From: Vreelandella subglaciescola
GTDB lineage: Bacteria > Pseudomonadota > Gammaproteobacteria > Pseudomonadales > Halomonadaceae
Direction: 5' to 3'
NCBI RefSeq assembly: GCF_900142895.1
Contig: NZ_LT670847.1
Span: forward strand, 868,001-932,000
DNA length: 64,000 bases
In this document: piece after piece, positions 25,739-64,000 of the stretch
How positions within the stretch are numbered: the first letter of the stretch is position 1
How the letters are laid out: every line of letters begins with the position of its first letter
Notes under the pieces: generated by a model
What the model saw: only the letters and a program-made list of their open reading frames with translations
Database searches by the model: none
Told to the model about the DNA's origin: nothing
Made by a program: the position numbers and the translations under genes

Positions 25739-27455
25739 CCCGCCTTATTCACCGGGCTGAGACAGAAAAGAAGATGGCGAGCAGTTTCTCTTGTAGAATC
25801 AATATGTTCCTAACCGAACTTGACTCAAGAGGACCACTCGCCATGGGTGAAAGCCTATCCCCCTGGACCCCGTCATGCAACGGGTCCATCCGCGTCGAGC
25901 TCAGCGGCCATCGCACCACCAGCGACAGCGGTGCTTTGCTGTTGCGTGAAGCCCTCGACAACAGCGGCATGATCGATGCGCTGGACGACCATCTGGTCGA
26001 TCATCGCGACCCGGATCGCGTCCGCCACTCGTTAGCCAGCCAGCTGCGTACCCTGGTGCTGCAGCGTTCGATGGGCTGGATCGACCTCAGCGATACCGAT
26101 ACGCTTCGCCGTGACCCGCTCTGGCAGCTAGCCTGCAGTGATGCCCGCGGGACAACGCCGTTGGCTCAGGACCGGCCATCTCAAGCGACGCTGTCGCGGC
26201 TGCTGACGTGCCTGGGCCGCGACGACAATATCGATACCGTGCATGAGGGCCTGCTGCGGCTGGCGGTCTGGCGACTGACCTCGCTGAACGGCGGCGAACG
26301 CCCCGAGCATCTGACGCTGGACATCGACGGCTTGCCGATCGACGTTCACGGCCACCAGGGCGGTTCGGCGTTTCATGGACTTTACGGGGCCAGAATCTAC
26401 TCGCCTTTGGTGGCCTCGCTGGCAGAGACCGGCGACATGGTGGGCGGCCTGCTGCGTGAAGGTAACGCCGGCCCAGCCGAGAATGCCGATACCTGGATCC
26501 CACATCTGGTGCGGCGACTCAACGAGAGCACCGGGGCCAAGGTCAAGGTGCGCATCGACGCCGGCTTCACCGACAACGACACGCTTGAGGCGCTGGAAGA
26601 TCGCGACATCGAGTATCTGGGCCGGTTGCGCAGTCATACGGGCCTGCAGACACTGGCAGCGCCACATCTGAAGCGGCCACGCGGCCGGCCCCCCGAGCAA
26701 CCTCGGGAATGGTGCCATGACCTGGCGTACCAAGCCGGTACCTGGCCGGCGCCGCGGCGCGTGGTGCTGGTGGTACAAGAGCGGCCCGATGATCTGCTGC
26801 TGCATGCCTTCTTTTTGGTCACCAATCTCGGCAAGTTCGACTGGCCGCCGGAAAAGGTCCTGGCGCTTTATCGCAAGCGCGGCAGCGCCGAAGCCCACAT
26901 GGGCGAGGTGAAGTCGTCGCTCGATATGCATCTCTCCTCGACTGATCGCGGTGTCTCCACCGTCCAGGACGTCATGGCCCGCAACGAGGTAAACCTGCTG
27001 CTGACTCTCTGCGCTTATCAGGTGCTACACGGGCTGCGTTGCCTGTTGGAACGACAGACCCGGCAGGGCTGGAGCCTGAAGCGGATGCGCGAGCAGGTGC
27101 TCAAGGTGGCCGCCACGCTGACAGTGCACGCCCGGCGTATCACCGTGCACCTCGGCGATGCCGCCGACAAATGGTGGCCATCCTTACTGAAGGGGTTGCC
27201 GCGGCTGACGGCATTGACCTGACACGTCGCATTACTCAGCCTTTTCCAGCAGACAAAACGGCCACTATGGAGGCCGACGACCACGGCTGCGCCGTCACTC
27301 GAAACCAATGAACTTCAGTTATAAATATCACGGCATTGATACGATAAAGCTATGTGCTAATCGGCTACTCAGCGACCGTATGACATAAAAGCCGGTCGGT
27401 CCCGGTCACCACGGGACGTAAAACGCTCGTTCGGCGTCCTGATGAATAAGGCGGG
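25739..27455 (+). mobile_element. IS1380-family element, copy A (1717 bp)
   Basis: A complete 1717-bp element with termini CCCGCCTTATTCA on both ends. It carries one transposase gene. The 5-bp flanks differ (CTGAG left, GTACA right), and they lie in two different genes: the end of coxA on the left and coxB on the right. That pattern fits recombination between two like-oriented copies with loss of the DNA between. Three further copies are at 48991, 53435 and 55549. Confidence 0.95.
25843..27222 (+). CDS. IS1380-family transposase (copy A)
   Basis: A 459-residue DDE transposase of the IS1380 family. Acidic motifs are LTLDIDGLPIDVHG, VRIDAGFTDNDTLEAL and KRGSAEAHMGEVKSS. The start ATG at 25843 (MGESLSPW) follows AAGAGGACC. 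The frame is open further upstream but includes non-conserved IS end sequence. It looks intact and is identical at protein level to copy D. Confidence 0.92.
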   Translation: MGESLSPWTPSCNGSIRVELSGHRTTSDSGALLLREALDNSGMIDALDDHLVDHRDPDRVRHSLASQLRTLVLQRSMGWIDLSDTDTLRRDPLWQLACSDARGTTPLAQDRPSQATLSRLLTCLGRDDNIDTVHEGLLRLAVWRLTSLNGGERPEHLTLDIDGLPIDVHGHQGGSAFHGLYGARIYSPLVASLAETGDMVGGLLREGNAGPAENADTWIPHLVRRLNESTGAKVKVRIDAGFTDNDTLEALEDRDIEYLGRLRSHTGLQTLAAPHLKRPRGRPPEQPREWCHDLAYQAGTWPAPRRVVLVVQERPDDLLLHAFFLVTNLGKFDWPPEKVLALYRKRGSAEAHMGEVKSSLDMHLSSTDRGVSTVQDVMARNEVNLLLTLCAYQVLHGLRCLLERQTRQGWSLKRMREQVLKVAATLTVHARRITVHLGDAADKWWPSLLKGLPRLTALT

Positions 27456-48990: not shown

Positions 48991-50707
48991 CCCGCCTTAT
49001 TCATCAGGACGCCGAACGAGCGTTTTACGTCCCGTGGTGACCGGGACCGACCGGCTTTTATGTCATACGGTCGCTGAGTAGCCGATTAGCACATAGCTTT
49101 ATCGTATCAATGCCGTGATATTTATAACTGAAGTTCATTGGTTTCGAGTGACGGCGCAGCCGTGGTCGTCGGCCTCCATAGTGGCCGTTTTGTCTGCTGG
49201 AAAAGGCTGAGTAATGCGACGTGTCAGGTCAATGCCGTCAGCCGCGGCAACCCCTTCAGTAAGGATGGCCACCATTTGTCGGCGGCATCGCCGAGGTGCA
49301 CGGTGATACGCCGGGCGTGCACTGTCAGCGTGGCGGCCACCTTGAGCACCTGCTCGCGCATCCGCTTCAGGCTCCAGCCCTGCCGGGTCTGTCGTTCCAA
49401 CAGGCAACGCAGCCCGTGTAGCACCTGATAAGCGCAGAGAGTCAGCAGCAGGTTTACCTCGTTGCGGGCCATGACGTCCTGGACGGTGGAGACACCGCGA
49501 TCAGTCGAGGAGAGATGCATATCGAGCGACGACTTCACCTCGCCCATGTGGGCTTCGGCGCTGCCGCGCTTGCGATAAAGCGCCAGGACCTTTTCCGGCG
49601 GCCAGTCGAACTTGCCGAGATTGGTGACCAAAAAGAAGGCATGCAGCAGCAGATCATCGGGCCGCTCTTGTACCACCAGCACCACGCGCCGCGGCGCCGG
49701 CCAGGTACCGGCTTGGTACGCCAGGTCATGGCACCATTCCCGAGGTTGCTCGGGGGGCCGGCCGCGTGGCCGCTTCAGATGTGGCGCTGCCAGTGTCTGC
49801 AGGCCCGTATGACTGCGCAACCGGCCCAGATACTCGATGTCGCGATCTTCCAGCGCCTCAAGCGTGTCGTTGTCGGTGAAACCCGCGTCGATGCGTACCT
49901 TGACCTTGGCCCCGGTGCTCTCGTTGAGTCGCCGCACCAGATGTGGGATCCAGGTATCGGCATTCTCGGCTGGGCCGGCGTTACCTTCACGCAGCAGACC
50001 GCCCACCATGTCGCCGGTCTCTGCCAGCGAGGCCACCAAAGGCGAGTAGATTCTGGCCCCGTAAAGTCCATGAAACGCCGAACCGCCCTGGTGGCCGTGG
50101 ACGTCGATCGGCAAGCCGTCGATGTCCAGCGTCAGATGCTCGGGGCGTTCGCCGCCGTCCAGCGAGGTCAGTCGCCAGACCGCCAGCCGCAGCAGGCCCT
50201 CATGCACGGTATCGATATTGTCGTCGCGGCCCAGGCACGTCAGCAGCCGCGACAGCGTCGCTTGAGATGGCCGGTCCTGAGCCAACGGCGTTGTCCCGCG
50301 GGCATCACTGCAGGCTAGCTGCCAGAGCGGGTCACGGCGGAGCGTGTCGGTATCGCTGAGGTCGATCCAGCCCATCGAACGCTGCAGCACCAGGGTACGC
50401 AGCTGGCTGGCTAACGAGTGGCGGACGCGATCCGGGTCGCGATGATCGACCAGATGGTCGTCCAGCGCATCGATCATGCCGCTGTTGTCGAGGGCTTCAC
50501 GCAACAGCAAAGCACCGCTGTCGCTGGTGGTGCGATGGCCGCTGAGCTCGACGCGGATGGACCCGTTGCATGACGGGGTCCAGGGGGATAAGCTTTCACC
50601 CATGGCGAGTGGTCCTCTTGAATTGTGTTCGTTCAGGAACATCTTGATTCTACAAGAGAAACTGCTCGCCATCTTCTTTTCTGTCTCAGCCCGGTGAATT
50701 AGGCGGG
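48991..50707 (-). mobile_element. IS1380-family element, copy B (1717 bp)
   Basis: A full-length copy in minus orientation. The right end reads GAATTAGGCGGG where copies A and D have GAATAAGGCGGG. The 5-bp flanks ATAAG and ATACC do not match, and the neighbours on each side belong to different genes. This suggests deletion between two insertions, as for copy A. Confidence 0.93.
49224..50603 (-). CDS. IS1380-family transposase (copy B)
   Basis: A 459-residue transposase with the same DDE motifs as copy A (LDIDGLPIDVHG, RIDAGFTDNDT, GSAEAHMGEV). It differs from the other copies by an Asp for Asn in SLDGGERPEH. Several silent differences show it is the most diverged copy. It appears intact. Confidence 0.92.
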   Translation of the reverse strand: MGESLSPWTPSCNGSIRVELSGHRTTSDSGALLLREALDNSGMIDALDDHLVDHRDPDRVRHSLASQLRTLVLQRSMGWIDLSDTDTLRRDPLWQLACSDARGTTPLAQDRPSQATLSRLLTCLGRDDNIDTVHEGLLRLAVWRLTSLDGGERPEHLTLDIDGLPIDVHGHQGGSAFHGLYGARIYSPLVASLAETGDMVGGLLREGNAGPAENADTWIPHLVRRLNESTGAKVKVRIDAGFTDNDTLEALEDRDIEYLGRLRSHTGLQTLAAPHLKRPRGRPPEQPREWCHDLAYQAGTWPAPRRVVLVVQERPDDLLLHAFFLVTNLGKFDWPPEKVLALYRKRGSAEAHMGEVKSSLDMHLSSTDRGVSTVQDVMARNEVNLLLTLCAYQVLHGLRCLLERQTRQGWSLKRMREQVLKVAATLTVHARRITVHLGDAADKWWPSLLKGLPRLTALT

Positions 50708-50873
50708 ATACCGCCTGCTTCTTTCTGGCATGTTAATCTGTCATTATGCAATTTCAATCCGCCTTCACTTTTCTTTGGGTATCTGTAAATGCTGAATAAA
50801 AAGACGCTTTCTGCTTTGGGTTTCTCCGGCCTTCTAGCCAGCGGTGCTGCTAGTGCAGCTTCATTTGGTCTAG

Positions 50874-52448
50874 CAGTCTGTCGGACTTGATGTTGATAAA
50901 GGCATTGAGACGTAGGTCTTTCAACCATCCCTTATGTTGGTGATGGTATATGACCCTTAACCTGCCCCTCGGCTTCTACTCTGCGAGGTGATTATCCGTC
51001 GTTACCGGCTGAGCGCTACGCGCCTCAGCCCGCTGCCAACCGGTGCATCCGTTTAATGTTCCATGCCATGGTGACCAGCCGCCACTCACCGCTGACATTC
51101 TCCAGCCCTCGCAGCGAGACCTGCCGGAACCCCATCACGTGTTTAATGATCCCGAAGACCGGTTCCACGGTATGTTTACGCAACGCGTAAAGCGCTCGCC
51201 CCGCCTGTGTCTTCAAGTGGTGTGCCATTTGCTCAACAGGCTCCTTGCTCGCTGGAGTAGGCGGGTCAGCGGCAAAGCGCTCAAGGACCGGGGGATGGTG
51301 GACATCGCGCTTCATTGCTATCAGAGGCTTGATACGGTGGTCGTGGCAGGCTTGAACATTGGCAGCACTGAAGTAGCCGGTATCGGCCAGTAAGTGGTCT
51401 GGTTTTGCTAACGGTGCGGGGAGTCTCGCCAACGCCGTCAGTAGCGGCATGACCTGCTGTTTGTCGTTGGTCGCTTGGGTGACATGGGTATGAGTCACCA
51501 GCATGCTGTCAGTATCGACTGCGGCCTGGGCGTTATAGCATTGATCGAAGCCCTTGCCGGTGACCGGCATGATGCGTGACTGCGGATCAGTAAGGTTAAC
51601 CTGATCTTTGTCACGCGGGCCACCTGTTGGCGGTTCAGGGTCACGTCCGCGAGGTTTCTTTCCCGTCTTCCGCTGCGCATCACGCCGTGCCACCTTTTCC
51701 TGGTAGGCCGCTTTTTCAGCGGCCTCACGCTCCTTGGCCCGAGCCTCGATCTTGGTCTTCGCTACGGCGATCGCTTCCAAGCGTGCTTCACGCCGGGCTA
51801 TCTCGGCAGGAATATCCATGCCGTCGGCCGCGTCATCCTTGTCCGCCGATGCAGCCCGCTGGGTCAGCGCCTTCACCTCAGCCTTGAACTGCGCCTCCAG
51901 TTTCTTGGCATGACCATATGACAATGCCTTGTGCTTGCTGGCATTGGCGTTGAGTTTGGTGCCGTCCAAGGCGATGGTGCCGAGCGTGAGTAGCTTCATT
52001 TCTCGGGCCAGCAGCAGAACTTGAACGAACAGCTGCTCCAGTTCCGGCAGAAAACGCCGACGAAAGGTAGCCAGGGTGTCGTGATCGGGGTGGGTGTTGG
52101 CGGCCAAATAGCGAAACGCCACCGAGTCATAGGTGGCACGCTCAATCTTGCGACTGGAGACCACGCCGGTAGCGTAGCCGTAGACCAACAGGTTCAGCAG
52201 TACCGCGGGATGATGGGCCTTGGAGCCCCGGCCCGCGTAACGCCGAGTCAGGGCTGAGAGGTCCAGTTGCTCGACGACATCGACGACGAACCGCGCCAAG
52301 TGGCCATCCGGCAACCACTCGTCTACCGAAGGCGGCAGTAAGTAATCGGTCTGACGGTCCACAGGGATAAAGCGGCTCATGGCGATGTTCTCAGTTCGGG
52401 GTGACAGCGGTTAGTATCTCACGGTGCGGCGGAAAGTCCGACAGACTG
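50874..52448 (-). mobile_element. IS1182-family element (1575 bp)
   Basis: Perfect inverted termini CAGTCTGTCGGACTT / AAGTCCGACAGACTG are flanked by a 4-bp palindromic target duplication CTAG (50870-50873 and 52449-52452). It is inserted just after the signal-peptide codons of the autotransporter. It carries one transposase gene; the 150 bases between its left end and the transposase stop are non-coding. Confidence 0.93.
51025..52380 (-). CDS. IS1182-family transposase
   Basis: A 451-residue IS4/IS5-superclass DDE transposase of the IS1182 group. The N-terminal part reads YLLPPSVDEWLPDGHLARFV. The first catalytic block is TIALDGTKLNANASKHKALS, the second LADTGYFSAANV and the last (with Glu) VEPVFGIIKHVMGFRQ. 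A charged coiled segment with a KKPRGRDPEPP linker lies between. It appears intact. Confidence 0.93.
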   Translation of the reverse strand: MSRFIPVDRQTDYLLPPSVDEWLPDGHLARFVVDVVEQLDLSALTRRYAGRGSKAHHPAVLLNLLVYGYATGVVSSRKIERATYDSVAFRYLAANTHPDHDTLATFRRRFLPELEQLFVQVLLLAREMKLLTLGTIALDGTKLNANASKHKALSYGHAKKLEAQFKAEVKALTQRAASADKDDAADGMDIPAEIARREARLEAIAVAKTKIEARAKEREAAEKAAYQEKVARRDAQRKTGKKPRGRDPEPPTGGPRDKDQVNLTDPQSRIMPVTGKGFDQCYNAQAAVDTDSMLVTHTHVTQATNDKQQVMPLLTALARLPAPLAKPDHLLADTGYFSAANVQACHDHRIKPLIAMKRDVHHPPVLERFAADPPTPASKEPVEQMAHHLKTQAGRALYALRKHTVEPVFGIIKHVMGFRQVSLRGLENVSGEWRLVTMAWNIKRMHRLAAG

Positions 52449-53434
52449 CTAGATGAGTTGATTCAGGTAGGCGCTACGCTGCCTGATATCAGCAGCCAGG
52501 TGAATGGCGCTGACTTGAGCCAGTCAAGCGGCACCATCACCCCAAGCGATAGCGCAGGCGAACCCTTGACAATCAGTACGCTCGATGGCGGATCCTTGGG
52601 TGACGCTCTGAAACGCCAAAACACGTTATTAAACATCAACGGCAACCAAGTACGTGTCAGCACTAGCGCCAGTAGCCTGGAAAACGCTTACGATGATGCC
52701 GGACAAAATCATACCTTCAACATTACTGCCGTAGTCGAGTCCCGCCCGATCTCCATCCAATGGGAAGGCCCCCTCAATGACATTGAAACCCAGAACACCT
52801 TCGACGTGACGCTGAACAATCAACCTGTCACTTTTAAGCTGGCGCCGGGCACTACGCTGGAAGATTTTGACGGCAATACGCCGTTTGAGCTATTCGATAA
52901 AAACGGCGATCTGCTTTTACAGGGAAAGCTGAACAATATTTCTGCTGGCCAAATTGAAAAAATCGCCGCTGACCTGGGCATTCTCAATGCTGACCTTGCC
53001 CTGCGTGCCGCACAAAAGCAGTTTATGGCACAGAGCTTTGGTATTATCAGCACACAAATTGACAATGCCATGCAGCCTACACTTGGCGGCGCCACAGGAA
53101 ACGGGAAACTATACGAACGTAGGGAAGGCATCAATGCCTGGGTTTCCACAGAAGTCAGGGATCTTTCAGGCAAAACCGCCAATACCAGTTATGATGGCGA
53201 CTCCAAGACCGCCATGGTGGGCGTTGAGCAAAAAGCAGGAAGCCTGCTTACCGGTGTTGCAGCAGGGCATAATAGCGTCGACATTACCAACAACAGCTTT
53301 GGCGAATCTGAAGCCAGGCTGAGCGGCAGCTTTCTTGCTCCCTACGGTGCGGTATCCTTGCTGAATGACAAGCTTGTGCTGGATGGCATTCTGCTATACC
53401 AAGACCTTGAAGGTGATTTCAGCAACAGCTTCAA

Positions 53435-55151
53435 CCCGCCTTATTCATCAGGACGCCGAACGAGCGTTTTACGTCCCGTGGTGACCGGGACCGACCGGCT
53501 TTTATGTCATACGGTCGCTGAGTAGCCGATTAGCACATAGCTTTATCGTATCAATGCCGTGATATTTATAACTGAAGTTCATTGGTTTCGAGTGACGGCG
53601 CAGCCGTGGTCGTCGGCCTCCATAGTGGCCGTTTTGTCTGCTGGAAAAGGCTGAGTAATGCGACGTGTCAGGTCAATGCCGTCAGCCGCGGCAACCCCTT
53701 CAGTAAGGATGGCCACCATTTGTCGGCGGCATCGCCGAGGTGCACGGTGATACGCCGGGCGTGCACTGTCAGCGTGGCGGCCACCTTGAGCACCTGCTCG
53801 CGCATCCGCTTCAGGCTCCAGCCCTGCCGGGTCTGTCGTTCCAACAGGCAACGCAGCCCGTGTAGCACCTGATAAGCGCAGAGAGTCAGCAGCAGGTTTA
53901 CCTCGTTGCGGGCCATGACGTCCTGGACGGTGGAGACACCGCGATCAGTCGAGGAGAGATGCATATCGAGCGACGACTTCACCTCGCCCATGTGGGCTTC
54001 GGCGCTGCCGCGCTTGCGATAAAGCGCCAGGACCTTTTCCGGCGGCCAGTCGAACTTGCCGAGATTGGTGACCAAAAAGAAGGCATGCAGCAGCAGATCA
54101 TCGGGCCGCTCTTGTACCACCAGCACCACGCGCCGCGGCGCCGGCCAGGTACCGGCTTGGTACGCCAGGTCATGGCACCATTCCCGAGGTTGCTCGGGGG
54201 GCCGGCCGCGTGGCCGCTTCAGATGTGGCGCTGCCAGTGTCTGCAGGCCCGTATGACTGCGCAACCGGCCCAGATACTCGATGTCGCGATCTTCCAGCGC
54301 CTCAAGCGTGTCGTTGTCGGTGAAGCCGGCGTCGATGCGCACCTTGACCTTGGCCCCGGTGCTCTCGTTGAGTCGCCGCACCAGATGTGGGATCCAGGTA
54401 TCGGCATTCTCGGCTGGGCCGGCGTTACCTTCACGCAGCAGGCCGCCCACCATGTCGCCGGTCTCTGCCAGCGAGGCCACCAAAGGCGAGTAGATTCTGG
54501 CCCCGTAAAGTCCATGAAACGCCGAACCGCCCTGGTGGCCGTGAACGTCGATCGGCAAGCCGTCGATGTCCAGCGTCAGATGCTCGGGGCGTTCGCCGCC
54601 GTTCAGCGAGGTCAGTCGCCAGACCGCCAGCCGCAGCAGGCCCTCATGCACGGTATCGATATTGTCGTCGCGGCCCAGGCACGTCAGCAGCCGCGACAGC
54701 GTCGCTTGAGATGGCCGGTCCTGAGCCAACGGCGTTGTCCCGCGGGCATCACTGCAGGCTAGCTGCCAGAGCGGGTCACGGCGAAGCGTATCGGTATCGC
54801 TGAGGTCGATCCAGCCCATCGAACGCTGCAGCACCAGGGTACGCAGCTGGCTGGCTAACGAGTGGCGGACGCGATCCGGGTCGCGGTGATCGACCAGATG
54901 GTCGTCCAGCGCATCGATCATGCCGCTGTTGTCGAGGGCTTCACGCAACAGCAAAGCACCGCTGTCGCTGGTGGTGCGATGGCCGCTGAGCTCGACGCGG
55001 ATGGACCCGTTGCATGACGGGGTCCAGGGGGATAAGCTTTCACCCATGGCGAGTGGTCCTCTTGAATTGTGTTCGTTCAGGAACATCTTGATTCTACAAG
55101 AGAAACTGCTCGCCATCTTCTTTTCTGTCTCAGCCCGGTGAATTAGGCGGG
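53435..55151 (-). mobile_element. IS1380-family element, copy C (1717 bp)
   Basis: A full-length copy with a clear 5-bp target duplication TTCAA (53430-53434 and 55152-55156). It is inserted in the autotransporter beta-barrel region between Asn of SFN and SVDLDGH. Its ends carry the same GAATTAGG variant as copy B. Confidence 0.95.
53668..55047 (-). CDS. IS1380-family transposase (copy C)
   Basis: A 459-residue transposase. From the MGESLSPW start it matches copies A and D at protein level; the leader upstream (RIKMFLNEHNS) is shared with copy B, so copy C has a B-type left leader with an A/D-type body. It appears intact. Confidence 0.92.
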   Translation of the reverse strand: MGESLSPWTPSCNGSIRVELSGHRTTSDSGALLLREALDNSGMIDALDDHLVDHRDPDRVRHSLASQLRTLVLQRSMGWIDLSDTDTLRRDPLWQLACSDARGTTPLAQDRPSQATLSRLLTCLGRDDNIDTVHEGLLRLAVWRLTSLNGGERPEHLTLDIDGLPIDVHGHQGGSAFHGLYGARIYSPLVASLAETGDMVGGLLREGNAGPAENADTWIPHLVRRLNESTGAKVKVRIDAGFTDNDTLEALEDRDIEYLGRLRSHTGLQTLAAPHLKRPRGRPPEQPREWCHDLAYQAGTWPAPRRVVLVVQERPDDLLLHAFFLVTNLGKFDWPPEKVLALYRKRGSAEAHMGEVKSSLDMHLSSTDRGVSTVQDVMARNEVNLLLTLCAYQVLHGLRCLLERQTRQGWSLKRMREQVLKVAATLTVHARRITVHLGDAADKWWPSLLKGLPRLTALT

Positions 55152-55548
55152 TTCAACTCTGTGGATCTTGACGGCCACCGCTTCGGGGCACGCGCAGCTG
55201 CTACCTATTACTTTCCTCGCTTCAGTAACGAGACCATACTGGCCGGCATTACCGCAGGCGGCGCATACATGAAAGATAGCATGGACGGCAAAGCGCTAGG
55301 CACCGAGGAAGATTATGGTATCGAGTTAGGCGAAGCCTTTGGCGGGATTAAACTTATTAAAGAATTTTCTACTGGCCGCATCTATAGTAGCGCCAAATAC
55401 TATGAAGACGTAACCAGTAATGTCGACAACTCGGCTAAACTGCTTGAGAACGATGATGACAGCCGTACCGAACTATTGATTGGTGCTACACACCGCCTCG
55501 GCGACAATATGGATTTTAACATTGCCGCGAGAACTACCGTCGCCTCAA

Positions 55549-57265
55549 CCCGCCTTATTCACCGGGCTGAGACAGAAAAGAAGATGGCGAGCAGTTTCTC
55601 TTGTAGAATCAATATGTTCCTAACCGAACTTGACTCAAGAGGACCACTCGCCATGGGTGAAAGCCTATCCCCCTGGACCCCGTCATGCAACGGGTCCATC
55701 CGCGTCGAGCTCAGCGGCCATCGCACCACCAGCGACAGCGGTGCTTTGCTGTTGCGTGAAGCCCTCGACAACAGCGGCATGATCGATGCGCTGGACGACC
55801 ATCTGGTCGATCATCGCGACCCGGATCGCGTCCGCCACTCGTTAGCCAGCCAGCTGCGTACCCTGGTGCTGCAGCGTTCGATGGGCTGGATCGACCTCAG
55901 CGATACCGATACGCTTCGCCGTGACCCGCTCTGGCAGCTAGCCTGCAGTGATGCCCGCGGGACAACGCCGTTGGCTCAGGACCGGCCATCTCAAGCGACG
56001 CTGTCGCGGCTGCTGACGTGCCTGGGCCGCGACGACAATATCGATACCGTGCATGAGGGCCTGCTGCGGCTGGCGGTCTGGCGACTGACCTCGCTGAACG
56101 GCGGCGAACGCCCCGAGCATCTGACGCTGGACATCGACGGCTTGCCGATCGACGTTCACGGCCACCAGGGCGGTTCGGCGTTTCATGGACTTTACGGGGC
56201 CAGAATCTACTCGCCTTTGGTGGCCTCGCTGGCAGAGACCGGCGACATGGTGGGCGGCCTGCTGCGTGAAGGTAACGCCGGCCCAGCCGAGAATGCCGAT
56301 ACCTGGATCCCACATCTGGTGCGGCGACTCAACGAGAGCACCGGGGCCAAGGTCAAGGTGCGCATCGACGCCGGCTTCACCGACAACGACACGCTTGAGG
56401 CGCTGGAAGATCGCGACATCGAGTATCTGGGCCGGTTGCGCAGTCATACGGGCCTGCAGACACTGGCAGCGCCACATCTGAAGCGGCCACGCGGCCGGCC
56501 CCCCGAGCAACCTCGGGAATGGTGCCATGACCTGGCGTACCAAGCCGGTACCTGGCCGGCGCCGCGGCGCGTGGTGCTGGTGGTACAAGAGCGGCCCGAT
56601 GATCTGCTGCTGCATGCCTTCTTTTTGGTCACCAATCTCGGCAAGTTCGACTGGCCGCCGGAAAAGGTCCTGGCGCTTTATCGCAAGCGCGGCAGCGCCG
56701 AAGCCCACATGGGCGAGGTGAAGTCGTCGCTCGATATGCATCTCTCCTCGACTGATCGCGGTGTCTCCACCGTCCAGGACGTCATGGCCCGCAACGAGGT
56801 AAACCTGCTGCTGACTCTCTGCGCTTATCAGGTGCTACACGGGCTGCGTTGCCTGTTGGAACGACAGACCCGGCAGGGCTGGAGCCTGAAGCGGATGCGC
56901 GAGCAGGTGCTCAAGGTGGCCGCCACGCTGACAGTGCACGCCCGGCGTATCACCGTGCACCTCGGCGATGCCGCCGACAAATGGTGGCCATCCTTACTGA
57001 AGGGGTTGCCGCGGCTGACGGCATTGACCTGACACGTCGCATTACTCAGCCTTTTCCAGCAGACAAAACGGCCACTATGGAGGCCGACGACCACGGCTGC
57101 GCCGTCACTCGAAACCAATGAACTTCAGTTATAAATATCACGGCATTGATACGATAAAGCTATGTGCTAATCGGCTACTCAGCGACCGTATGACATAAAA
57201 GCCGGTCGGTCCCGGTCACCACGGGACGTAAAACGCTCGTTCGGCGTCCTGATGAATAAGGCGGG
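55549..57265 (+). mobile_element. IS1380-family element, copy D (1717 bp)
   Basis: A full-length copy with 5-bp target duplication CTCAA (55544-55548 and 57266-57270). It is inserted near the very end of the autotransporter, splitting off the last 17 codons. It is in the opposite orientation to copy C, from which it is only about 400 bases away. Confidence 0.95.
55653..57032 (+). CDS. IS1380-family transposase (copy D)
   Basis: A 459-residue transposase identical in protein sequence to copy A. The upstream autotransporter frame happens to read through the IS end into the transposase frame, giving a 623-codon open frame from 55161; this fusion is incidental. The likely start is ATG 55653, after AAGAGGACC. 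Confidence 0.92.
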   Translation: MGESLSPWTPSCNGSIRVELSGHRTTSDSGALLLREALDNSGMIDALDDHLVDHRDPDRVRHSLASQLRTLVLQRSMGWIDLSDTDTLRRDPLWQLACSDARGTTPLAQDRPSQATLSRLLTCLGRDDNIDTVHEGLLRLAVWRLTSLNGGERPEHLTLDIDGLPIDVHGHQGGSAFHGLYGARIYSPLVASLAETGDMVGGLLREGNAGPAENADTWIPHLVRRLNESTGAKVKVRIDAGFTDNDTLEALEDRDIEYLGRLRSHTGLQTLAAPHLKRPRGRPPEQPREWCHDLAYQAGTWPAPRRVVLVVQERPDDLLLHAFFLVTNLGKFDWPPEKVLALYRKRGSAEAHMGEVKSSLDMHLSSTDRGVSTVQDVMARNEVNLLLTLCAYQVLHGLRCLLERQTRQGWSLKRMREQVLKVAATLTVHARRITVHLGDAADKWWPSLLKGLPRLTALT

Positions 57266-57520: not shown

Positions 57521-59533
57521 ATGGTATTACTAACCGCAGGCTACACCTCGCCGGGCATTGGCAAAATCACCGCGCTAAGCGCATTTTTGCCCGAATTTTC
57601 CGCGTTCACACGCCTGCGCTTACTGGCGAAAAAGCCTGATGCCATTATCGGCTGGGGACTTAAGCCCACCAGTCGTAAAGCCCGGCAGTATGCGCTGAAG
57701 CACGACATCCCCTATGTGGCGCTGGAGGACGGCTTTTTACGCTCATTGGGGCCGGGAAGCAGCGGCTACCAACCCAACAGCCTCATTGTCGACTCACGGA
57801 GCATCTACTACGACGCTTCGCGCCCTTCCGACCTGGAAGTATCCCTGAACGAAGTAACGTTCACAGCCGAGGAACTTAACGAGGCCAAGCATAGCATCGC
57901 ACTGCTGCAACATTATCGACTGTCCAAATACAATCACGCACCGGATGAACTGCCCGCCAACCTGCCTGACACTAACGTGCTGGTCGTTGACCAAACCGCC
58001 GGAGATGCCTCCATAACCTGCGGGCAAGCCAATGCCGCGACTTTTGATGAAATGCTGACCGCTGCCCTGACACAGCACCCGGACAGCACTCTTTGGGTCA
58101 AGACTCATCCCGATGTCATCAGCGGGAAAAAGCAAGGTCACCTATCCCGAGCGGTCGAGCACCCACGCTGCCACCTGATTGGCGACGACGTGAACCCCTG
58201 GGCCCTGTTTGACCAGGTCGATGAGGTTTACACGGTGACCAGCCAGCTGGGCTTTGAAGCGCTAATGGCCGGCAAACAGGTACACTGTTTCGGTCTGCCG
58301 TTTTACGCCGGCTGGGGACTCACGCACGATGCCCAGCCTTGCCCGCGCAGGCGGCGGTCTCGCACGCTTACCGAGGTGTTCGCTGCGGCGTACTTGCGCT
58401 ATTGTCGCTACGCCAACCCTTACACGGGCCAGCCTTCGACGCTACGCGATACCATCGCGCTAATTGCCGACCAACGTCGTCAGCGCGAACGTTGTCGCGG
58501 CCACTGGCTGGCCTGCGGCTTTTCCGGCTGGAAGCGCCGCTTTGTCGGCGACTTTACCGGCGACGCCAACTCGCTGATACATTACGCCAGACCGGCGCTA
58601 ATGCCCGCTTCTCAGGCGCCGTTGCTGGCTTGGTCATCTAACATTGAGGCGGATCTTATCGCGCACACGCGCCACCAAAAAGCTCCTTTGTGGCGCATGG
58701 AAGACGGATTTATCCGCTCTGCCGGGCTCGGCGTTGACCTGACGCGCCCTCTATCGCTGGTACTCGACCGACAAGGGATTTACTACGACCCGCGCCAACC
58801 CAGCGATCTGGAAACGCTGCTTAATACCACTACCTTCAGTCAGGATTTACTGATCCGCGCCCATGCGCTACGCCAGCGGCTGGTTGCCTTACGATTATCC
58901 AAATATAACCTCTCTGGACGAAAAACACGGCATAACAGCTTCCCGCCAAACCGCACATGTATACTTGTGCCAGGACAGGTTGAAAGCGACGCCTCGATAG
59001 CCGCCGGCTCACCAGAAATAAGCACCAACAGCGCCCTGCTTAAAGCAGTTCGCCACGCACAACCCCACGCGTACATTTTATATAAAGCGCATCCTGATGT
59101 ACTCTCCGGCGCTCGGATAGGCGAGCTGGATGACAGTGCCAGGCATTTTTACGACCTTGATGTGAGCCACGAAGAGATCACCGGTCTGCTTGAGTGCGTT
59201 GACAGCGTGCATACCATGAGCTCGTTAACCGGATTTGAAGCACTGCTGCGTGGCTGCACCGTGCACACCTACGGCCTGCCCTTTTACGCCGGCTGGGGGT
59301 TAACGCACGACGCCATGCACTGCGCCAGGCGCACCCGTCCGCTAAGTCTGGAGGCGCTGATTGCAGGTACCCTGATCCTGTACCCGCACTACGTGGACCC
59401 AGCCAGCGGCCAATTGTGTAACGCCGAAACAGTCATCACGCTGCTGGAAAACGCCACCTGCAGGCCCAACCGCCTGACGTGGCGCCAGCAACTCTATCGC
59501 CTCTACCGGAACCGGTTCATAGGAAGACATTAA
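57521..59533 (+). CDS. kpsC: Capsule poly-Kdo linker glycosyltransferase KpsC
   Basis: A 670-residue cytoplasmic protein with two tandem homologous modules (residues about 1-330 and 340-660), as in KpsC. KpsC extends the beta-Kdo linker that joins ABC-dependent (group 2/3) capsule to its lysophosphatidylglycerol anchor. Each module repeats the same blocks: ALEDGFLRSLGPG and RMEDGFIRSAGLG, then VKTHPDVISG and YKAHPDVLSG, then GLPFYAGWGLTHDA in both. The start at 57521 has only a weak ribosome site. It is the first gene of an operon continuing past the window edge. Confidence 0.93.
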   Translation: MVLLTAGYTSPGIGKITALSAFLPEFSAFTRLRLLAKKPDAIIGWGLKPTSRKARQYALKHDIPYVALEDGFLRSLGPGSSGYQPNSLIVDSRSIYYDASRPSDLEVSLNEVTFTAEELNEAKHSIALLQHYRLSKYNHAPDELPANLPDTNVLVVDQTAGDASITCGQANAATFDEMLTAALTQHPDSTLWVKTHPDVISGKKQGHLSRAVEHPRCHLIGDDVNPWALFDQVDEVYTVTSQLGFEALMAGKQVHCFGLPFYAGWGLTHDAQPCPRRRRSRTLTEVFAAAYLRYCRYANPYTGQPSTLRDTIALIADQRRQRERCRGHWLACGFSGWKRRFVGDFTGDANSLIHYARPALMPASQAPLLAWSSNIEADLIAHTRHQKAPLWRMEDGFIRSAGLGVDLTRPLSLVLDRQGIYYDPRQPSDLETLLNTTTFSQDLLIRAHALRQRLVALRLSKYNLSGRKTRHNSFPPNRTCILVPGQVESDASIAAGSPEISTNSALLKAVRHAQPHAYILYKAHPDVLSGARIGELDDSARHFYDLDVSHEEITGLLECVDSVHTMSSLTGFEALLRGCTVHTYGLPFYAGWGLTHDAMHCARRTRPLSLEALIAGTLILYPHYVDPASGQLCNAETVITLLENATCRPNRLTWRQQLYRLYRNRFIGRH

Positions 59534-59534
59534 C

Positions 59535-60773
59535 TTGGCACTCGAAAAGCGTACTTTCTTGTTTTTACAGGGCGTTTGCTCGCCTTTTAACACGCGTCTG
59601 GCTTCACGTCTGGAAGACGACGGACATCGAGTGATCAAGCTGAACTTCAACGCTGGCGATATTGCCTATTGGGGGCGCCAGGGCCATCATCGACACCTGT
59701 TTCGGGGTCGCCCCGAGGCGCTTGGCGACTACGTTAAAACACTCTGGCAGCGCTACGGCGTTACCGACCAGATTGCCTTTGGCGACCGCCGTCCTATTCA
59801 CCGATCGGCGGTCGAAAACGCCCCGCAGTCCGGCATACGCACCCACGTTTTTGAAGAAGGCTACTTTCGCCCATTCTGGATCACTCTGGAGCGCGAGGGT
59901 GTCAACGGCCACTCGCTACTGCCCCGAGACCCACAGTGGTTCTGGGACGTGGGTCGCTCGCTCCCCGAGCCGCCGCCGCCCACGCGTTTCAAGTCACGCT
60001 TTAAAGTACGTGCTCTACACGACGTGTGCTACCACGTTGCCGGCCTGACCAACCCGCTGGTCGCCCCGCACTACCGTAACCACTCGTCGATTATCGCCCC
60101 GCAGGAATATGCCGGCTATATACGACGCTTTGCGTGGCTACGTTACTGGAAAGCACGAGATCATGCCCGCATCCGCTCGCTGCTGTTGAGCCGACGGCCG
60201 TTTTTCATCCTGCCGCTGCAGCTAAATACCGACGCCCAGATTCGCGACCACTCGGTCTACGCCAACATGCAGGAGGTGATTGCCGCCACACTTGCCTCCT
60301 TTGCTGCCCATGCGCCGGAAAAGGCTGTGCTGTGTATTAAAAACCACCCGCTTGACCAGGGGCTTAATCACTATGCGCAGCTCGTCCTTCGGCTCGCCAG
60401 GGAATACGACATCGAGCAGCGCGTGGTTTACCTGGAATCGGGCGACCTCAACCGGATCACACGCCATGCGGCGGGGACTGTCACCGTCAACAGTACGACG
60501 GGGCTGGTGTCGATTGGCCAGAACTGTCCCACGATTGCGCTTGGCGACCCAATTTACCAGCTCGCGGGATTGACCTTTCAAGGCTCACTGAAAGATTTCT
60601 GGCAGCATCCGGAGCCCCCTTCCCCCGAGCTGTTTACATACTTTCATCGTACCGTCATGCATACTACGCAGATAAACGGCGGCTTCTATAATCAACCGGG
60701 TCTCGACTTGGCCGCCGACGGTGCTGCCCAGCGTTTATCCGCCTCTACATCTCCACTCGAACAGCTGCTCTAG
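59535..60773 (+). CDS. kpsS: Capsule Kdo transferase/export protein KpsS
   Basis: A 412-residue KpsS-like protein. KpsS adds the first beta-Kdo to the phosphatidylglycerol acceptor. It opens FLFLQGVCSPFNTRLASRLE, has FEEGYFRPFWITLE, then FILPLQLNTDAQIRDHS and later IKNHPLD and VNSTTGLVSIGQNCPTIALG, the usual C-terminal nucleotide-sugar region. The start is a TTG one base after the kpsC stop, with AGGAAG upstream, and no better start is nearby. It is in the same operon as kpsC. Confidence 0.9.
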   Translation: MALEKRTFLFLQGVCSPFNTRLASRLEDDGHRVIKLNFNAGDIAYWGRQGHHRHLFRGRPEALGDYVKTLWQRYGVTDQIAFGDRRPIHRSAVENAPQSGIRTHVFEEGYFRPFWITLEREGVNGHSLLPRDPQWFWDVGRSLPEPPPPTRFKSRFKVRALHDVCYHVAGLTNPLVAPHYRNHSSIIAPQEYAGYIRRFAWLRYWKARDHARIRSLLLSRRPFFILPLQLNTDAQIRDHSVYANMQEVIAATLASFAAHAPEKAVLCIKNHPLDQGLNHYAQLVLRLAREYDIEQRVVYLESGDLNRITRHAAGTVTVNSTTGLVSIGQNCPTIALGDPIYQLAGLTFQGSLKDFWQHPEPPSPELFTYFHRTVMHTTQINGGFYNQPGLDLAADGAAQRLSASTSPLEQLL

Positions 60774-60775
60774 CC

Positions 60776-61579
60776 ATGCCACAGCCTACAGCCACCCCTG
60801 CAACGACGATCCTGATTACCGGTGCCACCGGTGCGATTGGCGGCGCGCTTGCCGAGCGCTATGCCGTGCCCGGCGCGCACCTGATACTGCACGGACGCCG
60901 GCAGGATACCCTCGATGCTTTGGCACAGCGCTGCCGTGAACACGGCGCCTCAGTAGAGGTCTCACACGCGGATCTCACACAGGCCACCGCGCTGAGCGCA
61001 TGGCTGGATGCCGTTTGCGCGGCTCAAGTGCCGGATATCGTTATTGCCTGTGCAGGGAAGAACACACACCCGACGGCAGCGTGTGAGCTCGAGCCCCTCG
61101 CAGACGTTCAGGCGCTGCTCGAGATTAACCTGCAGACACCTATTGCCATGGCGCAGCACCTCGTGCCCCGCATGCGTGCCCGCGGCCGTGGGCAGTTGGT
61201 ATTTATCAGTTCGCTGGCGGCCTGGCACGGGCTACCCACCTCTCCCACATACAGCGCCAGCAAAGCCGGCATCAAAGCCTACGCCGAGGGGCTTCGCAGC
61301 TGGCTAAAACCCTGCGGCATTGGCGTCACGGTGGTCATGCCAGGCTACGTTACCTCGCCGATGTGTCAGGCCATGCCCGGCCCCAAGCCCTGGAAGTGGG
61401 CACCCGAGCGTGCGGCGCGCGTCATTCAGCGCGGTATCAGCGCTAACCGCGCGCGCATCGCTTTTCCTGTCTGGCTCAGTCTGGGCACCCACTGGCTGGC
61501 CATTTTGCCCGCCGGCATCTCGCAGTGGCTGCTCAGGCGACTGGGGTTTGACCGCCTGGAAGAAACGCCCGATGACTAG
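60776..61579 (+). CDS. Short-chain dehydrogenase/reductase in capsule operon
   Basis: A 267-residue classical SDR. The NAD(P)-binding glycine motif is TGATGAIGGALAE (residues about 15-27), the structural NxxG equivalent is CAGKN and the catalytic Ser-Tyr-Lys are in FISSLAAW and TYSASKAG. A hydrophobic C-terminal stretch (LAILPAGISQWLLRRLGF) could hold it at the membrane. It lies two bases after kpsS and overlaps the next gene by eight bases. By position it resembles the SDR (WcbP) between the KpsS-like and membrane proteins in Burkholderia capsule clusters. The substrate is unknown; a ketoacyl or ketoglyceryl group made by the following PKS is one possibility. Confidence 0.88.
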   Translation: MPQPTATPATTILITGATGAIGGALAERYAVPGAHLILHGRRQDTLDALAQRCREHGASVEVSHADLTQATALSAWLDAVCAAQVPDIVIACAGKNTHPTAACELEPLADVQALLEINLQTPIAMAQHLVPRMRARGRGQLVFISSLAAWHGLPTSPTYSASKAGIKAYAEGLRSWLKPCGIGVTVVMPGYVTSPMCQAMPGPKPWKWAPERAARVIQRGISANRARIAFPVWLSLGTHWLAILPAGISQWLLRRLGFDRLEETPDD

Positions 61580-63158
61580 CCCGTTTTACCTCCTGCTGAC
61601 TGCGGGCCTGGCCGGCACGCTGCTGATTGAGGCACTGCTTGCCCCACGCCCGTGCCCTTTCTGGCAGCGCGGCGGTGCCGCAGCAAGCGTCCATCTGGGC
61701 AGCTGGCTGCTCACCTTTGGCGCCTTTTTTGCTGTGCTCCAGCGCCCCGGGCTGGCCGTCGTGACGCTGCTCGCGCTACAGCTGGTCGTGGTCCAATCCA
61801 GCAATACCAAGTCGCAAACGCTCAACGAACCTTTTATTTGCCACGATTTCGAGTATTTCTGGGATGCGATACGCCATCCGCGTCTGTACGTGCCGTTTTT
61901 CGGCGTTAGGCTGGCCATCGCGGCCAGCACTGCCGGCGTTGTGGCCATTGCCGCCTTCTTTTACTGGGAAGCCTCCGCCGTCAGCCAGTGGGGGGGCTGG
62001 GCTTTTTTAGCAACGTGTGGGGGGCTGTGTGTCTCGGGTGCGGTGCTGATCGCGCTGGGACTCAGGCGGCTGGACGCGATTACGCTCCATCCTGCCCACG
62101 ACCTTGAAACACTAGGCCTGTTTGCCTCGCTCTGGGCCTACGGCGTCGCGCTGCTGCGCTCGTCAGCCCCACCGCCCGACGCATCGCCCTTTTACCACGA
62201 CACCGTCGCACCGCCGGCCGCGCCAACCACTGTGCTACCGCATACCGTGCTGGTACAAAGCGAATCCTTCAGCGACCCACGTAGCTGGTGCCCCGACGTG
62301 GCCGATGATCTGCTGCCACACTGGGACCTTAGCGGTCGTCAGGCGCAGCAGCGGGGCACGCTCAGTGTCCCCGCCTGGGGTGCAAATACCGTGCGCACCG
62401 AATGCGCAGTGCTGACCGGCCTGACGCCAGAACAGTGGGGCATTCGCCAGTTCAATCCTTACCGCACCCTGGCCCGCCGGCATTTTCCCAGCCTTGCTGC
62501 AACCTTCAAAAAAGCGGGGTACCGCACCGTTTGCGTTCATCCCTACCCCGCCAGCTTTTACTTTCGCCACCGGGTCATGCCACAGCTGGGATTCGATACC
62601 TTTATCGACGTCGAGGACTTTTCCCCCGACGACCGCAACGGACAGTATATCGGCGACGCCGCGGTGGCCCGGAAAGTCGCTGCGCTACTCGACGACAGCG
62701 CCGATGCGCCGCTGTTTATTTTTGTCATTACCATGGAAAACCACGGCCCGCTCGATCTGGAGCGGCCCCGGCACGACGCACTCGCTGATACCTTGCCACG
62801 CGCGCCTTGGCCTTTGCCCGCACACCAGCGTAACCTTGCCGTCTATCTGCACCACCTCCGCCAGGCTGATGCCATGCTGGAAACGCTAACCCGTGCGCTG
62901 GGTCAGGGCTCGCGCCCGGGCGTTCTAGGCTGGTACGGCGATCATGTGCCCATTCTGCCCCAAGCCTACGCCTACTATTCAGCGCCTACGGGTGAAACCC
63001 CCTATATGCTATGGTCATCACAAAAAAATCAACGTGATAGACACCCCACTACGCCACAACGACTCGCCGCGAACGAGCTGGGCAGCGTGCTGTTGCAACA
63101 CGTCTGGCAGGCGGCCTCTGGCCGACAAGGACCAAGAAAAGATTCGGAGTACCAATGA
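61572..63158 (+). CDS. LtaS-like membrane phosphoglycerol transferase / sulfatase-family protein
   Basis: A 528-residue protein with about five membrane helices in the first 230 residues and an external alkaline-phosphatase/sulfatase-fold domain. Catalytic features are HTVLVQSESFSDP, the nucleophile region NTVRTECAVLTGLTP, FVITMENHGPLDL and the metal-binding WYGDHVPILP. LtaS-type enzymes transfer glycerol phosphate from phosphatidylglycerol. In a capsule operon it may modify the lipid anchor or polymer. The start is ATG 61572, overlapping the SDR stop; the longer open frame upstream lies inside the SDR gene and is not protein-like. Confidence 0.85.
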   Translation: MTSPFYLLLTAGLAGTLLIEALLAPRPCPFWQRGGAAASVHLGSWLLTFGAFFAVLQRPGLAVVTLLALQLVVVQSSNTKSQTLNEPFICHDFEYFWDAIRHPRLYVPFFGVRLAIAASTAGVVAIAAFFYWEASAVSQWGGWAFLATCGGLCVSGAVLIALGLRRLDAITLHPAHDLETLGLFASLWAYGVALLRSSAPPPDASPFYHDTVAPPAAPTTVLPHTVLVQSESFSDPRSWCPDVADDLLPHWDLSGRQAQQRGTLSVPAWGANTVRTECAVLTGLTPEQWGIRQFNPYRTLARRHFPSLAATFKKAGYRTVCVHPYPASFYFRHRVMPQLGFDTFIDVEDFSPDDRNGQYIGDAAVARKVAALLDDSADAPLFIFVITMENHGPLDLERPRHDALADTLPRAPWPLPAHQRNLAVYLHHLRQADAMLETLTRALGQGSRPGVLGWYGDHVPILPQAYAYYSAPTGETPYMLWSSQKNQRDRHPTTPQRLAANELGSVLLQHVWQAASGRQGPRKDSEYQ

Positions 63159-64000
63159 CTAAACGCGTGGCCATCATTGGCGCCGCCTACCGCTTTCCCG
63201 GCACAACGCCCGAGACGTTCTGGCACGACCTGAAAAAAGAAAAGGACTTTGTCACCCAGGTGGCGTCCGACCGCTGGAGCCAAGAGGTTTTTCAGCATCC
63301 TGATCGACGGCACCCGGGCACCAGCGTGACCTTTGCCGCTGGAAGCCTTGGCGACATCAGCGGCTTTGATGCCGAGTTTTTTGGTATCTCACCCCGTGAA
63401 GCGGCCCATATGGACCCCCAGCAGCGCATCCTGCTGGAGCTTGCCTGGGAAAGCCTGGAAGACGCCGGCATGGTACCGGCCAAACTGCGCGGCACCCAGT
63501 GCGGCGTGTATTTGGGCATCGCCAGCCAGGACTACTCCTACCGGTTTGCCGATGACATGTCGGCCATTGACTCATCGTCGGCCACCGGCAACACCGCAAG
63601 CGTAGCGGCCAACCGCCTGTCGTACCTGTTTGACCTGCACGGCCCCAGCCTCTCGCTGGACACGGCCTGCTCGTCGTCGCTGGTGGCGTTTCACCAGGCG
63701 TGCCAGGCGATTCGCAGCGGCGATATTTCCATGGCGATTACCGGGGGCATCAGCCTGCACCTGCATCCTTACGGTTTCCTGATCTTTTCCAAGGCCGGGA
63801 TGCTTTCCTCCTCGGGGCGCTGCCGGGTCTTCGACGCTGACGGTGATGGCTACGTGCGCTCGGAGGGCGGCGGGCTTTTCATACTCAAGGAGTATGAGCA
63901 GGCGCTCGCTGATAACGACCGCATACTCGCCGTCGTCGCCGGTTCGGCAATGAATACCGACGGCCGTAAAGCCGGACTGACGGTGCCCGACCCGGCGGCG
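63155..64000 (+). CDS. Type I polyketide synthase, N-terminal ketosynthase (cut by window end)
   Basis: The first 282 codons of a large modular protein; the frame is open at the window edge. It begins MTKRVAIIGAAYRFPGTTPE, the standard KS opening, with FFGISPREAAHMDPQQRILLE and the active-site cysteine Cys172 in LDTACSSSLVAFHQA, then GRCRVFDADGDGYVRSEG. The His motifs of the KS and any AT, KR or ACP domains lie beyond the window. The ATG overlaps the stop of the LtaS-like gene (ATGA) and has GGAG upstream, so it is in the kpsC operon. It is comparable in position to WcbR of Burkholderia pseudomallei capsule I. Confidence 0.92.
   Translation, partial: MTKRVAIIGAAYRFPGTTPETFWHDLKKEKDFVTQVASDRWSQEVFQHPDRRHPGTSVTFAAGSLGDISGFDAEFFGISPREAAHMDPQQRILLELAWESLEDAGMVPAKLRGTQCGVYLGIASQDYSYRFADDMSAIDSSSATGNTASVAANRLSYLFDLHGPSLSLDTACSSSLVAFHQACQAIRSGDISMAITGGISLHLHPYGFLIFSKAGMLSSSGRCRVFDADGDGYVRSEGGGLFILKEYEQALADNDRILAVVAGSAMNTDGRKAGLTVPDPAA

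What the first reader, a model, noticed from the sequence alone, without database searches (positions are those of the whole stretch)
57521..64000. Capsule lipid-anchor module: kpsC-kpsS-SDR-LtaS-like-type I PKS in one overlapping operon
Kdo-linker enzymes that act on phosphatidylglycerol are followed, with 1-2 base gaps or overlaps, by a reductase, a membrane phosphoglycerol transferase and a polyketide synthase. As I recall, Burkholderia pseudomallei capsule I has the same order (wcbO KpsS-like, wcbP SDR, wcbQ membrane protein, wcbR PKS/FAS-like). A plausible reading is that PKS, SDR and LtaS-like enzyme build or attach a special lipid or acyl substituent on capsule. Its chemistry is, to my knowledge, not established.
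Basis: partly seen in the sequence, partly recalled or inferred. Interest (0 to 1): 0.75.

Follow-up and report, generated by a model that had tools for sequence, protein, structure and literature searches.

The report
Likely sphingolipid module in capsule operon
A salt-loving bacterium carries, in one operon with its capsule-linker enzymes, a set of genes that most likely builds a sphingolipid with a phosphoglycerol head as the greasy foot on which its sugar capsule is made, which would give a job to a gene set so far known only as 'lipid carrier' genes.

Summary
The operon kpsC-kpsS-SDR-LtaS-like-PKS continues with the rest of a 2466-aa reducing PKS without thioesterase, an alpha-oxoamine synthase (AOS) and an RfaH-like gene. 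The set equals wcbOPQRT / rkpAGHIJ, already called lipid-carrier genes in print, so it is a new member of a known kind. The chemistry can now be proposed: PKS-linked AOSs are sister to AOSs from loci two of which hold sphingolipid genes, and in 2025 a PKS-AOS pair (PfSgaAB) was shown to make sphinganines plus probable phosphoglycerol-sphinganines, in a paper that never mentions capsules. The LtaS-like protein, nearest to phosphoglycerol transferases, tracks the Kdo transferases: in 199 genomes of one genus both occur in the same 8, this AOS in 7 of them. Best reading: PKS-AOS-SDR make sphinganine, the LtaS-like enzyme adds phosphoglycerol, KpsS/KpsC use this lyso-PG mimic. Shown: gene content, co-distribution, conserved residues. 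Inferred: the last two steps. Against: unresolved topology; LtaS-like without PKS/AOS in 3 capsule genomes; PKS-AOS without capsule genes in a few.

The parts
57521..59533 (+). kpsC: two-domain beta-Kdo transferase (670 aa), extends the Kdo linker
   Evidence: PF05159 318.7 bits, 3 stretches; only set found in the genome
59535..60773 (+). kpsS / wcbO-type: first beta-Kdo transferase onto the lipid (412 aa, TTG start)
   Evidence: PF05159 272.7 bits; NCBIfam KpsS model 262.1 bits, below its cut-off 600
60776..61579 (+). SDR (wcbP-type), predicted 3-ketosphinganine reductase
   Evidence: PF00106 124 bits; S-Y-K motif in the sequence; same subtype beside AOSs of the sister clade in L139 and L141
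61572..63158 (+). LtaS-like membrane enzyme (wcbQ-type), predicted phosphoglycerol transferase: five hydrophobic helices + sulfatase-fold domain
63155..64000 (+). PKS (wcbR/rkpA-type), first 282 of 2466 aa; the gene continues to 70555 outside the window (L002 6155-13555)
   Evidence: KS, AT, DH, ER, KR, ACP; active-site motifs

Best explanation
The operon makes and uses a dedicated capsule lipid anchor. (1) The iterative, fully reducing PKS makes a saturated long acyl chain on its ACP from malonyl units. (2) The AOS releases it by decarboxylative condensation with an amino acid, most likely serine, giving 3-ketosphinganine. (3) The SDR reduces this to sphinganine. (4) The LtaS-like enzyme moves glycerol-phosphate from phosphatidylglycerol to the sphinganine 1-hydroxyl, giving a phosphoglycerol-sphinganine, a mimic of lyso-phosphatidylglycerol. 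(5) KpsS and KpsC put the Kdo linker on its glycerol, and the capsule is built and exported by KpsMTED. Steps 1-3 rest on family evidence plus published chemistry of a PKS-AOS pair of the same kind; steps 4-5 are inference from enzyme family, operon and co-distribution.
Against: LtaS-like beside KpsS without PKS/AOS in the fetched stretch and without WcbT-type AOS in the genome: G303, G317, G327. PKS-AOS without PF05159: G012 and G169 (71% complete), and a weaker pair in G437. No LtaS-like gene found in G265, G167, G262, G012, G169 nor in loci L075, L079-L081. The whole model incl. TM part matches EptA, periplasmic as I recall, whereas KpsS works at the cytoplasmic face (PMC7694667); loop charges point the other way, so topology is open. 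The window SDR has no sphingolipid name visible among 120 listed relatives. Against the PDB the AOS scores a Thermus AONS/KBL (224.6) slightly above SPT (214.0). The phosphoglycerol structure in PMC12134224 rests on exact mass, and the abundance of two of the three did not rise with sphinganine. A 2005 title speaks of a 'phospholipid anchor' on S. meliloti 1021 capsule (title only).
Confidence: 0.6

Rival explanations
1. PKS-AOS-SDR make a sphingolipid that is a free envelope lipid or secreted metabolite; the capsule sits on ordinary (lyso-)PG and the neighbours are only co-regulated.
For: E. coli K5 KpsS/KpsC use (lyso-)PG (PMC7694667 passages); PfSgaAB products were found as free lipids and act on a host (PMC12134224); PKS-AOS without PF05159 in G012, G169.
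Against: In the genus of G190 KpsC/S-type, LtaS-like and AOS genes share the same few genomes; [quoted passage not shown] WcbT-type AOS in 9 family codes of the sample, 8 of them with PF05159.
Confidence: 0.2
2. The LtaS-like enzyme decorates the polysaccharide with glycerol-phosphate (GacH-like), as suggested for Cobetia; it has nothing to do with the lipid.
For: Cobetia marina capsule carries Man-6-P-glycerol and its authors link this to WcbQ (PMC11766843 passages); nearest fold is GacH, a polysaccharide glycerol-phosphate transferase; LtaS-like occurs with KpsS without PKS/AOS in 3 genomes.
Against: It stays with KpsC/KpsS and mostly the SDR in distant genomes even where PKS-AOS lie elsewhere (G400, about 2 Mb away on one contig; G095, other contig), so it follows the linker genes; Burkholderia capsule I and S. 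meliloti K antigens are, as I recall, not so modified.
Confidence: 0.15
3. Anchor swap: the capsule is started on PG in the cytoplasm, and after export the LtaS-like enzyme transfers capsule-Kdo-glycerophosphate from PG to the sphinganine on the periplasmic side.
For: Fits the usual periplasmic side of LtaS/EptA folds (side recalled) and the chemistry of phosphoglycerol transfer.
Against: No LtaS-family enzyme is known to me to move so large a head group; free phosphoglycerol-sphinganines in PMC12134224 suggest the plain transfer.
Confidence: 0.08
4. The PKS makes an acyl decoration of the capsule, or the AOS is a biotin-type (BioF) or other enzyme.
For: BioF is the best NCBIfam model for the AOS, 331.7 bits, but below its cut-off 426.45.
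Against: The tree puts it outside the BioF rows; PKS upstream of the AOS in 79 of 80 loci; no sugar acyltransferase among the operon genes.
Confidence: 0.03

Closest known systems
wcb operon wcbPQRT of Cobetia marina KMM 1449 (PMC11766843, passages) and wcb genes of Burkholderiaceae
   Same: Same families beside kpsSC, kpsETMD and PAPS genes; named there as capsule lipid biosynthesis
   Different: Authors leave the lipid open ('probably fatty acids') and give WcbQ a role on the chain; the window has no deacetylase gene between PKS and AOS as in L156 and L157
rkp-1 region (rkpU, rkpA, rkpG, rkpH, rkpI, rkpJ) of Sinorhizobium
   Same: Export gene, PKS, AOS, SDR, LtaS-like, KpsS in S. meliloti Ak57 (the matching of rkp names to genes is by order); [quoted passage not shown]
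   Different: SDR of the KDSR-like type; gene order differs; LtaS-like only distantly alike (109.5 bits to the window protein)
PfSgaA-SgaB-SgaC of Pseudomonas fluorescens MYb115 (PMC12134224)
   Same: Iterative PKS + AOS with SPT activity + SDR; products sphinganines and probable phosphoglycerol sphinganines
KpsS/KpsC Kdo linker of E. coli K5 on (lyso-)PG (PMC7694667, passages)
   Same: The same two Kdo transferases acting on a phosphoglycerol lipid
   Different: E. coli acceptor is a glycerophospholipid; PKS, AOS and LtaS-like partners are not part of that system as I know it
GacH / LtaP / LtaS phosphoglycerol transferases
   Same: Fold, conserved catalytic residues, membrane part
   Different: Acceptor here unknown, predicted a sphingoid base

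Membership tests
wcb/rkp-1 capsule lipid module | KpsS-type, SDR, LtaS-like, PKS and AOS genes together at a capsule locus | tested here: met
   named relatives L154-L156; L157 has all but a KpsS gene in the stretch
wcb/rkp-1 capsule lipid module | ABC-type capsule export in the same genome | tested here: met
   ABC ATPase, ABC2 permease and Poly_export genes in L092; the KpsE assignment rests on position, Pfam GNVR 21.6 bits is below its cut-off 27.7
wcb/rkp-1 capsule lipid module | needed for capsule | not testable with these tools
   only titles of 1997 and 2009 papers seen in reference lists
Sga-type PKS sphinganine pathway | single-module KS-AT-DH-ER-KR-ACP PKS without thioesterase followed by AOS | tested here: met
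Sga-type PKS sphinganine pathway | AOS has serine palmitoyltransferase activity | not testable with these tools
   K286 invariant; tree and neighbours of sister rows
Sga-type PKS sphinganine pathway | KDSR-type reductase | tested here: inconclusive
   rhizobial SDR relatives named 3-dehydrosphinganine reductase; window SDR is another subtype, no such name seen
LtaS/GacH phosphoglycerol transferases | sulfatase fold with conserved metal-site and Thr residues | tested here: met
   (roles of the residues recalled)
LtaS/GacH phosphoglycerol transferases | catalytic domain outside the cytoplasm | tested here: inconclusive
   EptA-like whole fold against loop charges
LtaS/GacH phosphoglycerol transferases | transfers glycerol-phosphate from PG | not testable with these tools
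   needs biochemistry
BioF / biotin AOS | falls with BioF, bio neighbours | tested here: not met
   below NCBIfam cut-off; outside rows L117, L118, L120, which lie beside a BioB-like ORF read by eye
swf sponge-symbiont PKS | reductase-sulfotransferase partner SwfB, HATGT and DPQ[IV]R KS motifs (PMC3908369) | tested here: not met
   HGTGT and DPQQR in the KS; no such partner among the genes scanned

The most novel reading that the evidence does not exclude
Many Gram-negative capsules (halophile, Burkholderia-type, Sinorhizobium, Pseudomonas) are anchored not on a glycerophospholipid but on a polyketide-made phosphoglycerol-sphinganine; the LtaS-like protein (WcbQ/RkpI) is the phosphoglycerol transferase that turns a sphingoid base into the KpsS acceptor, and the 'secondary-metabolite' sphingolipids of PfSgaAB are the free pool of a capsule anchor.
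Probability: 0.45. Interest if true: 0.85.

Novelty: new member of a known kind. Interest (0 to 1): 0.68.

Why it matters
The job of rkpAGHIJ and wcbPQRT is given in the papers seen only as making 'a lipid carrier or anchor' (PMC3557214, PMC11766843). Joining that with the 2025 PKS-sphingolipid work gives each gene a reaction and a mass that can be looked for at the capsule reducing end. If right, sphingolipids are a structural part of the capsule in bacteria not counted as sphingolipid producers, which would bear on symbiosis, immune recognition and capsule-based products.

Tried and rejected
BioF/biotin function for the AOS: not borne out by the tree and neighbours. Acyl decoration of sugar: no enzyme for it seen in the operon. 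A separate PKS cluster: the PKS ends and is followed by the AOS and RfaH-like gene. E. coli-type element GGCGGTAG (recalled) upstream of kpsC: none between 57033 and 57520. FA hydroxylase PF04116 in the own genome: none. Name search with the LtaS-like alignment: relatives are called 'LTA synthase family protein' or the like (best 120 of a capped candidate set), no help for function. Literature searches: in the listings I saw no paper stating a capsule-sphingolipid link; brought PMC12134224. Only open-licence PMC papers are searched, so this is no proof of absence in print. The fold listings are led by the catalytic domain; the TM part was not searched alone.

Limits: the 80 loci come from exact peptide patterns of the window AOS and so are mostly near relatives. 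The 500-bit line between WcbT-type and other AOSs was set after seeing the scores (lowest above 513.9, next below 461.2). One search examined 36 genomes: 17 WcbT-type, 2 with weaker PKS-linked AOS (G041 with, G322 without LtaS-like) and 17 of the 65 PF05159-positive WcbT-negative genomes, picked by me mainly from the upper part of the list, not at random. Searches used limits 1e-110, 1e-40 and 1e-20. Fisher tests take no account of kinship. In that genus the LtaS-like matches of G549 and G586 are partial, the fetched stretch of G586 showed no KpsS or SDR, that of G549 only PKS-AOS, and G523 was not fetched. The tree left out rows used (plant LCB2a, own L146, L116 and several near relatives). 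In the SDR tree two rows (L139_13391, L141_16517) were badly trimmed, and the PKS KR row is very long; their places mean nothing. Motifs were read by eye; the DH motif of the window has D where G is usual. Loop charges come from a plain hydropathy script, and loop 3 and the C-terminal side hold as many D+E as K+R. PF05159 matches were cut off in the listing, so counts of KpsS paralogues are lower bounds.
Full report
What is there. The window is G000:C1:868001-932000 of a 3.11-Mb single-contig genome; the nearest AOS relatives are Halomonas and Vreelandella. The five genes of the finding are real, in order and tightly packed. Reading on in the genome the PKS is 2466 aa with KS, AT, DH, ER, KR and ACP and no thioesterase hit; an alpha-oxoamine synthase (PF00155, BioF/SPT family) follows 33 bases later, and an RfaH-like gene (TIGR01955, 168.2 bits, cut-off 144.5) starts at the AOS stop. 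Then come PAPS-type genes, glycosyltransferases, rml genes and kpsE-T-M-D-like genes, much as described for Cobetia marina (PMC11766843, passages). The genome has a single KpsC/KpsS set and two PPTase-family matches.

PKS. Active-site motifs of KS, AT, DH, KR and ACP and the ER and KR nucleotide motifs are kept in the window protein, with D for G in the DH motif; the AT motifs GHSVGE and YAFH point to malonyl-CoA by recalled rules. A methyltransferase-like stretch between DH and ER is degenerate in the window protein (LLEAGPCAPALG) but looks better kept in L126 and L130 (by eye). A fully reducing iterative PKS without thioesterase needs another enzyme for release; the AOS is the natural one.

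AOS. It has the PLP lysine (K286, invariant in 4 of 4 rows). Against the PDB it scores 224.6 bits to a Thermus AONS/KBL and 214.0 to a serine palmitoyltransferase, which does not decide. In the tree, 17 PKS-linked AOSs and 4 AOSs from other loci (L139-L142) form one side of a branch with 100/99 support against 8 other rows, among them BioF and the two PDB references. Of the four sister rows, L139 has a sphingolipid delta-4 desaturase hit (PF08557, 26.1 bits, cut-off 23), a fatty acid desaturase and a PF04116 hydroxylase nearby; L142 has inositol-phosphate synthase, a KDSR-like SDR and a CTP transferase; L141 has an adjacent SDR and scores 238.2 to SPT and 191.2 to the next family; L140 was not annotated. 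Rows L117, L118, L120 lie beside a BioB-like ORF (by eye).

Published chemistry. PMC12134224 (abstract, sections 7, 8 and 15 read whole; other passages) reports that the PKS-AOS pair PfSgaAB of Pseudomonas fluorescens MYb115 makes C24, C26 and C28 sphinganines, that PfSgaB condenses acyl-CoA with L-serine with virtually exclusive preference over alanine and glycine, that a KDSR-like SDR (PfSgaC) lies in the cluster, and that lipids 154 Da heavier are most likely phosphoglycerol sphingolipids. The authors find 6,101 homologous putative clusters, mostly in Burkholderia. Its main text has no occurrence of 'capsul', 'polysaccharide' or 'LTA synthase'. Its locus tags leave room for four genes between SDR (RS19775) and AOS (RS19800); on the Pseudomonas plasmid L154 exactly four lie there: LTA synthase family, GNAT, capsular protein, dioxygenase. 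That parallel is inference.

SDR. Relatives of the rhizobial L079 SDR are named 3-dehydrosphinganine reductase in 18 of 120 listed rows (two names cut but readable; a further one cut to '3-de'), the rest bearing general names or none. The window SDR is of another subtype, with no such name visible in 120 rows, but that subtype occurs beside the sister-clade AOSs in L139 and L141.

Co-occurrence. In 398 genomes of the phylum PF05159 occurs in 80 and the WcbT-type AOS in 17 (18 loci), of which 15 have PF05159, against 65 of the other 381, Fisher 1.1e-9 without correction for kinship. The LtaS-like protein is in 12 of these 15, 0 of the 2 without PF05159, and 3 of 17 hand-picked controls, p = 0.001. 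In the 199-genome sample of another genus in the same order, PF05159 is in 8, LtaS-like in the same 8 (two partial), and the AOS (over 600 bits) in 7 of these 8; a weaker AOS (424 bits) stands in G437 without PF05159. Of the 8, seven were fetched in part: G569, G530, G588, G400 and G547 show kpsC-kpsS-SDR-LtaS-like in a row, G586 parts of it, the G549 stretch only PKS-AOS; in G400 the PKS-AOS pair lies about 2 Mb from the block. In the phylum sample the linker genes with SDR and LtaS-like lie on another contig than PKS-AOS in G095, G185 and G151, the last two on short contigs. Named records agree: S. meliloti Ak57 (export gene, PKS, AOS, SDR, an ORF missing from the record's table that is LtaS-like with 169.4 bits, KpsS), Paraburkholderia (KpsS, SDR, LTA synthase, PKS, deacetylase, AOS, GNAT) and Caballeronia (SDR, LTA synthase, PKS, deacetylase, AOS, export genes).

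Against the reading. Three capsule genomes pair LtaS-like with KpsS without a WcbT-type AOS (G303, G317, G327). G012 and G169 have PKS-AOS without PF05159, and G012 carries two such loci, one near an FA hydroxylase and a lipid-A-type acyltransferase, so the PKS lipid can have a life without this capsule linker. G265, G167, G262, L075 and L079-L081 lack a detected LtaS-like gene. In L075, G262 and G265 two KpsS-type genes are present, in G167 one full-length match was listed; this possible trade-off was noticed after the fact. Three of the 12 LtaS-like matches contain one stop codon.

Verdict. The locus is a member of the wcb/rkp capsule-lipid module. What I did not find in the listings is the joined reading: sphinganine made by PKS-AOS-SDR, phosphoglycerol added by the LtaS-like enzyme, Kdo added by KpsS/KpsC. 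I put the sphingoid base at about 0.85, the phosphoglycerol step by the LtaS-like enzyme at about 0.65, its use as capsule anchor at about 0.65.

Noticed in passing
window 49224-57032: A 482-aa transposase-like ORF twice (49224-50672, 53668-55116) and again inside ORF 55161-57032; 482-aa ORFs also at 25774-27222 and L003 10711-12159 (PF13701; identity not checked). ORF 52401-53525 and the start of ORF 55161 look by eye like pieces of one autotransporter-like surface protein split by insertions.
   Followed up: no
L075 13247-14086; L134 1909-2730; L154 15366-16409: Lipid hydroxylase-type genes (PF04116, phytanoyl-CoA dioxygenase family) near PKS-AOS loci, as if some members hydroxylate the base.
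   Followed up: partly
G265, G262, L075 against LtaS-like-positive genomes: Three of four examined capsule loci or genomes with PKS-AOS but no LtaS-like gene hold two KpsS-type genes, as if a second glycosyltransferase replaced the phosphoglycerol step (G167 is the exception).
   Followed up: partly
L134, L135 (G012): Two PKS-AOS loci in a genome without PF05159, one near an FA hydroxylase, a lipid-A-type acyltransferase and a GT4: perhaps a PKS sphingolipid for another purpose.
   Followed up: partly
L156 13025-13939, L157 13018-13944: A gene annotated UDP-3-O-acyl N-acetylglycosamine deacetylase between PKS and AOS in two Burkholderiaceae, absent in the window; a GNAT gene follows the AOS in L156.
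   Followed up: no
L002 14908-15444: RfaH-like gene at the operon end, found in 37 of 80 relatives' loci; no GGCGGTAG element just upstream of kpsC.
   Followed up: partly
L154: A Pseudomonas plasmid typed as mobilizable carries the capsule-lipid module with kdsA, kdsB and a KpsF-type gene.
   Followed up: no
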